Shown: positions 93-1,932 of the stretch, in pieces
How positions within the stretch are numbered: position 1 is the stretch's first letter
How the letters are laid out: each line of letters begins with the position of its first letter
Assembly: GCA_028821235.1 (NCBI GenBank)
Contig: JAPPGV010000120.1
Coordinates: 1 to 56,479, forward strand
Source: a bacterium
GTDB lineage: Bacteria > Actinomycetota > Acidimicrobiia > Spongiisociales > Spongiisociaceae
Reading direction: 5' to 3'
Length of the DNA: 56,479 nt
Position numbers and translations under genes: made by a program
The notes under the pieces: generated by a model
The model's input: the letters and a program-made list of their open reading frames with translations, nothing else
Told to the model about the DNA's origin: nothing
The model's database searches: none

Positions 93-151
93 ACCAACTC
101 AAGTATCCCCTCCCACTCCGGAAAACTGGGGTATCCCCTCCGCGCTTGTCA
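93..151. mobile_element. Possible insertion-sequence terminus (IS21-like end)
   Basis: Two direct copies of GTATCCCCTCC lie at 103-113 and 131-141, 28 bp apart, followed by TGTCA at 147-151. Ends of IS21-family elements typically carry spaced direct repeats next to a TGACA/TGTCA terminus, so the body of such an element would lie left of the window. No transposase reading frame is visible in 1-150, so this is only an inference from the end structure. Nothing else is recognisable in 1-215. Confidence 0.3.
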
Positions 152-215: not shown

Positions 216-1100
216 GTGGGTGTAGGCTGTCGTATGACGAGAGGGTTGATGGTTCGGACTCGCAGTTATGTTGGTGAGCTTGTCCCGCCGATACAGGCCT
301 TGGAGTTCTATCTGCAAAGGGGCGGGACCACGATCCTGAAGGCGGCTTTCAACTATTCGTTCTTCGTGGATCCCACCCGAGTGAGACAGCGGACTCCCTA
401 TTTCCCGGACCGGGCTCGGTTCAGCCGAAAGTTCTACCGGGGCAAAGGTCGTGGCGATGAGGCTACCTGGGAGGGGCGGACCGTCATCCTTGGTGACAAC
501 GCCTACGCTCAGCAGGCCTGGCAGAGGTACAGCGGCCGGAGTATCTACCGTGGCTCTGGGTACAGCGTTCGCCACATCTGGGGTCATCCATGGAACCCCG
601 ACGCATTCACAGCCGGGTGGAACCTCTGCTACATGCCGTTCTGGGCAGGCATGTTGACAGAGAGACAGCACCCTCATCCAGAGCTGCAACAGGCCGTACG
701 CCAAGCTTCTTGGGACTTGTTCTTCCGGAACGATCCTGTATGCGAACCTCCGGAGTTCGTGTCAGACCCCGGAGTTGAACTGGATTCTCTCCTAGGGGAT
801 CAGCCGCTACTCCTTCTCACAGACGAAACCGACACCAGACCCTCCACCCGTAGACCCTCGCCGGACTCTCCTACACAAGATGTCTGGGACGGGGTGAAGC
901 GCATCAGGACTCACACACATCAGAGTTGGTCGAACATCTGCAAAGCTGTCCTAGCGCTCCAAGAAAAACCACATCCACAGTTCGGGACTCCGAACGTGGA
1001 AGCCAGTTCCAAGAGCACCGTCCGACGCATTCAACGCGAGACAGGTCTCAGCTTGGCACAGCTCGAAGCGCTCCTGAAGAAGCAGGCCGTCTGGAAGTGA
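216..1100 (+). CDS. Unrecognised protein with C-terminal HTH-like module shared with the next gene
   Basis: 294 residues from a GTG; ATG at 234 or 249 are alternative starts and 249 has a GAGAGGG upstream. I do not recognise the family. The first 200 residues are rich in aromatic residues and contain a segment VRHIWGHPWNP followed by AGWNLCYMPFW, in which the His and Asn spacing loosely recalls HNH-type folds; that is a guess. A low-complexity Pro/Ser/Thr linker (about 205-220) leads to a 73-residue C-terminal module with SSKSTVRRI and LSLAQLEALL, which looks like a small helical DNA-binding domain. The same module ends the protein encoded at 1230-1721, with 6 differences in 73 residues. It lies directly after a possible IS end, so it is probably accessory DNA. 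Confidence 0.65.
   Translation: MGVGCRMTRGLMVRTRSYVGELVPPIQALEFYLQRGGTTILKAAFNYSFFVDPTRVRQRTPYFPDRARFSRKFYRGKGRGDEATWEGRTVILGDNAYAQQAWQRYSGRSIYRGSGYSVRHIWGHPWNPDAFTAGWNLCYMPFWAGMLTERQHPHPELQQAVRQASWDLFFRNDPVCEPPEFVSDPGVELDSLLGDQPLLLLTDETDTRPSTRRPSPDSPTQDVWDGVKRIRTHTHQSWSNICKAVLALQEKPHPQFGTPNVEASSKSTVRRIQRETGLSLAQLEALLKKQAVWK
916..1027 (+). repeat. Direct repeat copy 1 (112 bp, identical)
   Basis: This 112-bp block is identical to 1537-1648, offset by 621 bp. It encodes the centre of the shared C-terminal module of two neighbouring genes. Homology continues at lower identity on both sides, to the stop codons. Confidence 0.95.
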
Positions 1101-1229
1101 GCCAGATCAGGATCCGGCCACTCCTCATTTCCTTGCGGGCGATCCGCCTCATCCACCACGGTCTTGTGGAAAGCGAGACCAGTGACATGAGGACCGAGAC
1201 AGGGCATCCGGCAAATAGGCACGCCGCAG

Positions 1230-1721
1230 ATGGCTGACAGCGGCCTAGTCACCGTCATGGTGTGGCTGTTCATCATAGGCTTCGTAATCTATGCGATAGG
1301 CGGGCTGGCTGCCATCATCGGCGGGTGGGCATCTGCAATGAGAGCACTTAGCAAGGATCAACCAAGAAAGGCGAGGACACCTGACCGTCCGAGAACTCAC
1401 AACAACCCAACTGGCCCGGGAACGCCCGCTCCGCAGCGTCAGGACGACCCCAATCTCCCTCAGACTGCCCCCTCGCTGCCATCCGACTCTCCTACGCTGG
1501 ATGCCTGGGAGGGAGTAAAGCGGATCAGGACCCGCGCACATCAGAGTTGGTCGAACATCTGCAAAGCTGTCCTAGCGCTCCAAGAAAAACCACATCCACA
1601 GTTCGGGACTCCGAACGTGGAAGCCAGTTCCAAGAGCACCGTCCGACGTATCCTGCGCGAGACAGGCCTCAGCCTGGCACAGCTCGAATGGCTCCTGAAG
1701 AAACAGGCCGTCTGGAAGTGA
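1230..1721 (+). CDS. Membrane-anchored protein with the same C-terminal HTH-like module
   Basis: 163 residues from ATG at 1230. The N-terminus has one hydrophobic segment (about residues 6-34, VMVWLFIIGFVIYAIGGLAA) that should be a membrane anchor. A basic then Pro/Thr-rich linker of about 55 residues follows, and then the 73-residue module also found at the end of the preceding protein. The module is therefore present once on a soluble-looking protein and once on a membrane-tethered one. The two genes are in the same direction, 129 bp apart, and may be co-expressed. No known family is recognised; a shared DNA-binding or partner-binding domain is an inference. Confidence 0.65.
   Translation: MADSGLVTVMVWLFIIGFVIYAIGGLAAIIGGWASAMRALSKDQPRKARTPDRPRTHNNPTGPGTPAPQRQDDPNLPQTAPSLPSDSPTLDAWEGVKRIRTRAHQSWSNICKAVLALQEKPHPQFGTPNVEASSKSTVRRILRETGLSLAQLEWLLKKQAVWK
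1537..1648 (+). repeat. Direct repeat copy 2 (112 bp, identical)
   Basis: Identical to 916-1027. Identity at every codon position, including silent ones, points to recent duplication or gene conversion. Confidence 0.95.
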
Positions 1722-1758: not shown

Positions 1759-1932
1759 GTGCCCACCTATCGCACAACCAGCCAAACCCCCGAGACTGCC
1801 ACGAACCAACTCGACTGGGCGTTCGCGTCACGCCGCTTCCACCGTAACGTCAAAGTGCCCGTCCTCAACGAAGTCGACGAATGGGGACCGAGCGACCAAT
1901 GCCGGCTACTCATCGAAATCGTCGGCGACTAG
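1759..1932 (+). pseudogene. C-terminal fragment of an endonuclease/exonuclease/phosphatase-type protein
   Basis: A 57-codon open frame encodes a segment with NQLDWAFASRRFH and LNEVDEWGPSDQCRLLIEI. This resembles the C-terminal end of EEP-family nuclease-like proteins, where the usual ending is a SDHCR motif. Here the catalytic His of that motif is Gln (SDQC). An in-frame TGA at 1696-1698 cuts off anything upstream, so only the last domain strand pair survives. It follows the duplicated module closely and is most likely a decayed remnant left by rearrangement. The family assignment is from recall of the motif only. Confidence 0.45.

What the first reader, a model, noticed from the sequence alone, without database searches (positions are those of the whole stretch)
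216..1721. Pair of unrecognised proteins, one soluble and one membrane-anchored, ending in the same module
The 73-residue C-terminal modules differ at 6 positions, and a 112-bp core is identical even at silent sites, whereas the N-terminal parts are unrelated (an aromatic-rich domain with an HNH-like spacing versus a membrane helix and linker). This looks like domain shuffling or gene conversion keeping two modules alike. A shared DNA- or partner-binding module on a soluble effector-like protein and on a membrane-tethered partner would suit a defence or conflict system. The flanks, a possible IS end and a nuclease remnant, fit an accessory region.
Basis: partly seen in the sequence, partly recalled or inferred. 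Interest (0 to 1): 0.62.

Follow-up and report, generated by a model that had tools for sequence, protein, structure and literature searches.

The report
Orphan HNH-like nuclease with membrane-anchored partner
A horizontally acquired bacterial gene for an unrecognised nuclease-like protein, whose relatives sit inside anti-phage defence systems, lies next to a second gene that puts a near-copy of the same C-terminal module on a membrane anchor.

Summary
P1 (best start 249; 249-1100) and P2 (1230-1721) end in modules that are 91% identical, with a 112-bp core identical even at silent sites. P1 belongs to a sparse, uncharacterised family found in Actinomycetota, Alpha- and Gammaproteobacteria and Chloroflexota, with no Pfam, NCBIfam, PHROGs, PADLOC or PDB match. 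Its N-terminal domain carries an invariant H-x15-N core, as in HNH nucleases, but not the usual third histidine. Two sister subfamilies were found by profile comparison. Members of these lie beside CapH-CapP, PglW/PglX and ZacC genes, so the domain is defence-linked. The C-terminal module is the family's normal tail, replaced in some relatives by other domains; it is four-helical and of unknown fold. P2 is the anomaly: a membrane-helix version of the module seen in no other genome searched. The two modules diverged under purifying selection (dN/dS 0.18) and their core was then homogenised, so P2 is probably a real gene built from P1's tail. I read P1 as an orphan restriction-like effector and P2 as its local membrane-tethered partner or restrainer. 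The nuclease part is fairly supported; P2's role is inference. There is no sign that the two-protein pairing is a general system.

The parts
249..1100 (+). P1: 283-aa orphan protein, N-terminal HNH-like domain plus C-terminal four-helix module
   Evidence: ORF 216-1100; family alignment supports ATG 249; 14 homologous loci, 48-72% identity
264..845 (+). HNH-like domain of P1; invariant H and N in HIWGHPWNPDAFTAGWNL (residues 104 and 120 of the 264-1097 translation)
   Evidence: profile-profile matches to two sister subfamilies
864..1097 (+). C-terminal module, P1 copy
   Evidence: AlphaFold2 four helices, pLDDT mostly above 90
1230..1721 (+). P2: 163-aa membrane-anchored protein ending in the same module
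   Evidence: no other genome with this layout
1230..1340 (+). P2 membrane helix, basic on its C-terminal side, so module probably cytoplasmic
   Evidence: hydropathy; codon score 0.26 per codon, as for the window's coding genes (mean 0.25)
1341..1484 (+). P2 linker, poor coding score
1485..1718 (+). C-terminal module, P2 copy
   Evidence: dN/dS 0.18 against the P1 copy
916..1027 (+). 112-bp core identical to 1537-1648, probable gene conversion or recombination tract
   Evidence: run-length test
1759..1932 (+). 57-aa frame resembling the C-terminus of an exo/endonuclease/phosphatase, probable remnant
   Evidence: read by eye; no Pfam hit

Best explanation
P1 is a horizontally acquired, stand-alone, HNH-like nuclease. 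Its N-terminal domain is the cutting part; its C-terminal four-helix module is one of several interchangeable recognition or docking tails (inferred from domain swaps in relatives). It most likely works as an orphan restriction-like defence effector. P2 arose locally: the stretch encoding P1's tail, from linker to stop codon, was copied next door behind a membrane helix, kept under purifying selection, and its core was later homogenised with P1. P2 therefore shows the same binding surface as P1 on the inner face of the membrane, and most likely either recruits P1 to the membrane or competes with P1 for its target and so restrains it. Shown: the family, domain swapping, H/N core, sister families in defence loci, selection on the module. 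Inferred: nuclease activity, the module's binding, and P2's role.
For: Family of 14 further loci, 48-72% identity, with invariant H and N at spacing 16. Profile-profile match to a DUF7662-fused and stand-alone subfamily (E 9e-14, 98%) and to a second subfamily (E 4e-8, 95%, centred on the H..N motif). Members of these sisters lie beside capP (7.7e-71) and capH (3.5e-30), PglW (score 1486) and PglX (6e-304), and ZacC (5e-274) with a NERD helicase. Domain swaps: DUF7662 or a tyrosine-recombinase SAM-like domain at the N-terminus, other C-termini in L013 and L020. Foreign composition. P2: modules dN/dS 0.18, binomial P 5e-4; membrane helix; duplication edges at the linker and the stop codon.
Against: No third HNH histidine at the usual place; the core of the AlphaFold2 model is below pLDDT 50 and Foldseek finds nothing. 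None of the P1-family loci examined showed a complete defence system around the gene. P2 exists in one genome, its linker scores as non-coding, and purifying selection could have acted before the two copies came together. The module's fold search is inconclusive.
Confidence: 0.48

Rival explanations
1. P1 is a selfish, free-standing HNH-like homing endonuclease gene that spreads between the ends of operon genes; P2 is debris of a local duplication.
For: Family genes sit as single units tightly behind unrelated host genes: overlap of 4 bp in L014 (HemY) and L016, gaps of 14-19 bp in L007, L010, L011, and directly after rbfA in L020. Two 91.8%-identical copies in one genome share exactly 1118 bp, gene plus about 95 bp upstream and 80 bp downstream, with unrelated flanks. 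A sister-family gene lies neatly between hisB and hisH in Pasteurella. Patchy distribution across phyla.
Against: Insertion sites share no sequence. No split recognition site was shown, and no empty sites were available. Sister subfamilies sit in defence loci, not only as orphans. Swapping of tails is not typical of one homing site.
Confidence: 0.22
2. P2 is a non-functional by-product: a duplicated 3' end joined by chance to an open frame with a hydrophobic stretch.
For: Only one genome has it; the linker scores as non-coding; weak similarity only of its N-terminus to other membrane helices.
Against: The module frame is intact with dN/dS 0.18; the helix-coding part has normal codon usage; duplication ends match domain edges; such a hydrophobic stretch occurs in 0.6% of open frames.
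Confidence: 0.25
3. The module is a helix-turn-helix-like DNA-binding domain and P2 is a membrane-bound regulator of P1 expression.
For: Four helices; weak structural similarity to the HTH domains of TraR and DegU (Z 4.0 and 3.6); other family members replace the module with a recombinase SAM-like DNA-binding domain.
Against: Z values are in the range of unrelated helical bundles; Foldseek has no significant match; no operator-like repeats were examined between the genes.
Confidence: 0.15

Closest known systems
HNH / His-Me finger nucleases
   Same: Invariant His and Asn 16 residues apart in a hydrophobic setting; relatives in defence loci
   Different: No conserved third His or Asn at the usual spacing; no Pfam HNH hit; fold not confirmed
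Effector-associated domains (EADs) of bacterial conflict systems (PMC7159879)
   Same: Small helical non-enzymatic module on two adjacent genes, the copies being closest to each other
   Different: No core component such as VMAP, iSTAND or GAP1 seen; the module occurs singly in all other loci
DUF7662-containing proteins (PF24698)
   Same: A sister protein (L022) fuses DUF7662 to the same HNH-like domain
   Different: P1 has no DUF7662; its tail is a different domain
CapH-CapP associated cargo genes
   Same: A sister-subfamily gene (L079, L081) follows capH and capP directly
   Different: P1 has no CapH-CapP neighbours in the sequence held; that gene lacks the module

Membership tests
HNH / His-Me finger nuclease | General-base His and structural Asn at about 15-17 residues | tested here: met
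   Spacing 16 in all 13 family members and in most sister proteins
HNH / His-Me finger nuclease | Third metal-binding His or Asn about 8-10 residues after the Asn | tested here: not met
   Alignments show no conserved H, N or D there; a conserved T-E/T-D lies 12-13 after the Asn
HNH / His-Me finger nuclease | Beta-beta-alpha metal fold | tested here: inconclusive
   Model residues 97-120 have pLDDT under 50; no fold match
HNH / His-Me finger nuclease | Metal-dependent DNA cleavage | not testable with these tools
   needs protein
Effector-associated domain pair | Small, mostly helical, non-enzymatic module | tested here: met
   Four helices, pLDDT mostly above 90
Effector-associated domain pair | Copies on adjacent genes closer to each other than to others | tested here: met
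   91% against at most about 66% elsewhere
Effector-associated domain pair | One copy fused to a core component of a conflict system | tested here: not met
   P2 has only a membrane helix; the downstream genes tested are DUF2461, HTH_3, PNPOx, a methyltransferase and NIF3; upstream lies beyond the contig end
Known defence-system protein | Match to a PADLOC model | tested here: not met
   No hit better than E 0.037 for P1, none for P2
Mobile element (transposon or phage gene) | Phage or IS family match, terminal repeats | tested here: not met
   No meaningful PHROGs match, no phage or viral contig, no shared flanks

The most novel reading that the evidence does not exclude
P1 and P2 form a membrane-coupled defence nuclease: the shared module pairs with itself or a common ligand, so that the orphan nuclease is held at the inner membrane where foreign DNA enters. 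The module would be a new adaptor domain, and a simple tail duplication would have created the membrane branch.
Probability: 0.13. Interest if true: 0.65.

Novelty: new variant of a known kind. Interest (0 to 1): 0.42.

Why it matters
It points to an unmodelled superfamily of HNH-like domains, absent from the family libraries searched, that recurs in defence islands (beside CapH-CapP, PglW/PglX, ZacC) and as single genes tucked between housekeeping genes. If active, it would add a nuclease family with swappable tails to the defence catalogue. P2 would show how a two-protein membrane version can arise by copying one tail.

Tried and rejected
Family libraries Pfam, NCBIfam, PADLOC, PHROGs: nothing for P1 or P2; weak hits such as OAD_gamma (E 0.019) come from the membrane helix. 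PDB sequence profiles of A1, A3, A4: nothing. Fold searches of the whole protein and of the module: no trustworthy match; TraR and DegU HTH domains appear at Z 4.0 and 3.6, within the noise for helical bundles. Integron cassette or IS origin: no shared ends, and no terminal repeats or attC-like ends stood out at the 1118-bp repeated unit (read by eye). Viral contigs, phages, plasmids: no P1 relative; one distant sister on the Methylorubrum AM1 megaplasmid. P2 N-terminus in relatives: only weak low-scoring helix matches. The tree of the N-domain is largely unresolved, so transfer between phyla is suggested by mixed composition and identities, not proved. Literature search for DUF7662: no paper.

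Full report
Observation. The window is the whole of contig C120 of its genome and starts at the contig's end. P1 is open from 216 but, by comparison with its family, starts at ATG 249. P2 starts at ATG 1230. The direct repeat 864-1103 / 1485-1724 is 92% identical and ends just behind both stop codons. Seventeen codons differ; the longest identical run is 112 bp, which random placement of the 20 differences gives with probability 5e-5. In the own genome the module occurs only in these two places. The region has GC 0.588 against 0.674 for the rest of the contig, in the lowest 1% of 1.5-kb stretches.

P1 is a family member. A scan of one genome per species found 14 loci, most of them metagenome-assembled genomes. 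They come from Acidimicrobiia and related Actinomycetota, Alpha- and Gammaproteobacteria and Chloroflexota, at 48-72% identity. The N-terminal domain of about 200 residues is strongly conserved; F34, A51, R52, N79, H104, W106, P112, T116, W119, N120 and P125 hold even in a distant relative. The family is rare: 1 other of 396 genomes of the phylum, and that one distant, 1 other of 99 relatives, and no other of 301 genomes of the Chloroflexota sample.

Tails are swapped. Nine of the loci carry the same C-terminal module as P1. L013 and L020 carry other C-termini; L016 and L017 have no module but an N-terminal tyrosine-recombinase SAM-like domain (E 1.4e-4 and 3.2e-4); the distant L022 has DUF7662 in front (E 4.9e-16). 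A family-level genome (G013) also holds a broken copy of a P1-like gene with the module. The exchangeable tail suggests recognition or docking, with the conserved domain as the working part.

What the N-domain is. Its core reads HIWGHPWNPDAFTAGWNL: His and Asn 16 apart, as in HNH nucleases. A second subfamily (L022, L049, L046, L051, L053, L054) keeps the His and Asn (profile-profile E 9e-14), and so does a third (L071-L074; E 4e-8). Spacing is 16 in most and 17 or 27 in three. The third HNH residue is missing at the usual place, and the AlphaFold model is uncertain just there, so I call it HNH-like and not HNH.

Defence link. In L079 and L081 the third-subfamily gene directly follows an HTH repressor and a metallopeptidase; the L079 repressor matches capH and the metallopeptidase matches capP (E 3.5e-30; 7.7e-71), in an element with a serine recombinase and AbiEi/AbiEii-like genes read by eye. 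In L080 it lies after an Mrr-like endonuclease (E 1.3e-6) and before PglW and PglX. L022 lies between a NERD helicase and ZacC. These are the best grounds for reading P1 as a defence-type effector. P1's own subfamily is mostly solitary.

Insertion pattern. Members of P1's family sit just behind unrelated genes in the same direction: 4-bp overlaps in L014 (HemY_N) and L016 (ADP-ribosylglycohydrolase), gaps of 14-19 bp in L007, L010 (PIN toxin) and L011, and after rbfA in L020. One genome has two copies that share exactly 1118 bp. A third-subfamily gene sits between hisB and hisH in Pasteurella. This resembles free-standing homing endonuclease genes and is my main rival reading for P1; no empty site could be tested.

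P2. Its first 37 codons score as coding and form a strong membrane helix with basic residues on the C-terminal side; by the positive-inside rule (established knowledge) the module would be cytoplasmic. The linker scores poorly. The modules have dS 0.26, dN 0.046, dN/dS 0.18 (P 5e-4 against neutrality), so both copies evolved as protein, at least for part of their history, before the 112-bp core was homogenised. No other locus has a membrane-anchored module. P2 is therefore best read as a local invention from P1's tail: a tethered partner or a competitor. This step is inference.

Comparison with the known. The adjacent-gene, same-module arrangement recalls the effector-associated domains described in PMC7159879, which are small, mostly helical, and closest between neighbours. 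Two of those features are met. The defining fusion to a core component is not met here, and other genomes have the module only once per locus. It may work like such a pair without being one.

Verdict. Real and partly informative: an unmodelled, defence-linked HNH-like superfamily is well supported; the soluble/membrane pair is real in sequence but unique to this genome, and its function is open.

Noticed in passing
L079:6144-8061, L081:7361-9278: capH-like repressor, capP-like peptidase and an HNH-like gene of a sister subfamily in a row, followed by a serine recombinase: a possible regulated defence cassette.
   Followed up: partly
L080:3169-13647: Mrr-like endonuclease and an HNH-like gene next to PglW and PglX homologues.
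   Followed up: partly
L077:5992-6654: Sister-subfamily gene placed between hisB and hisH of a Pasteurella multocida record, overlapping hisB by 4 bp and ending 2 bp before hisH.
   Followed up: no
L031 and L043 (G496 contig 50): Two copies of the SAM-like + HNH-like gene 17.8 kb apart; 95 bp before the gene are 100% identical while the gene is about 92%, and the two different upstream frames end in the same C-terminal tail.
   Followed up: partly
L020:5466-6795: P1-family gene directly after rbfA of an infB-rbfA operon in a Zoogloeaceae genome.
   Followed up: partly
L046:2977-3654: Stand-alone member of the second subfamily on the Methylorubrum extorquens AM1 megaplasmid, not listed in the plasmid gene table.
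   Followed up: no
window 96-113 and 124-141: An 18-bp motif (AACTGGGGTATCCCCTCC) repeated with 3 mismatches near the contig end, unexplained.
   Followed up: no
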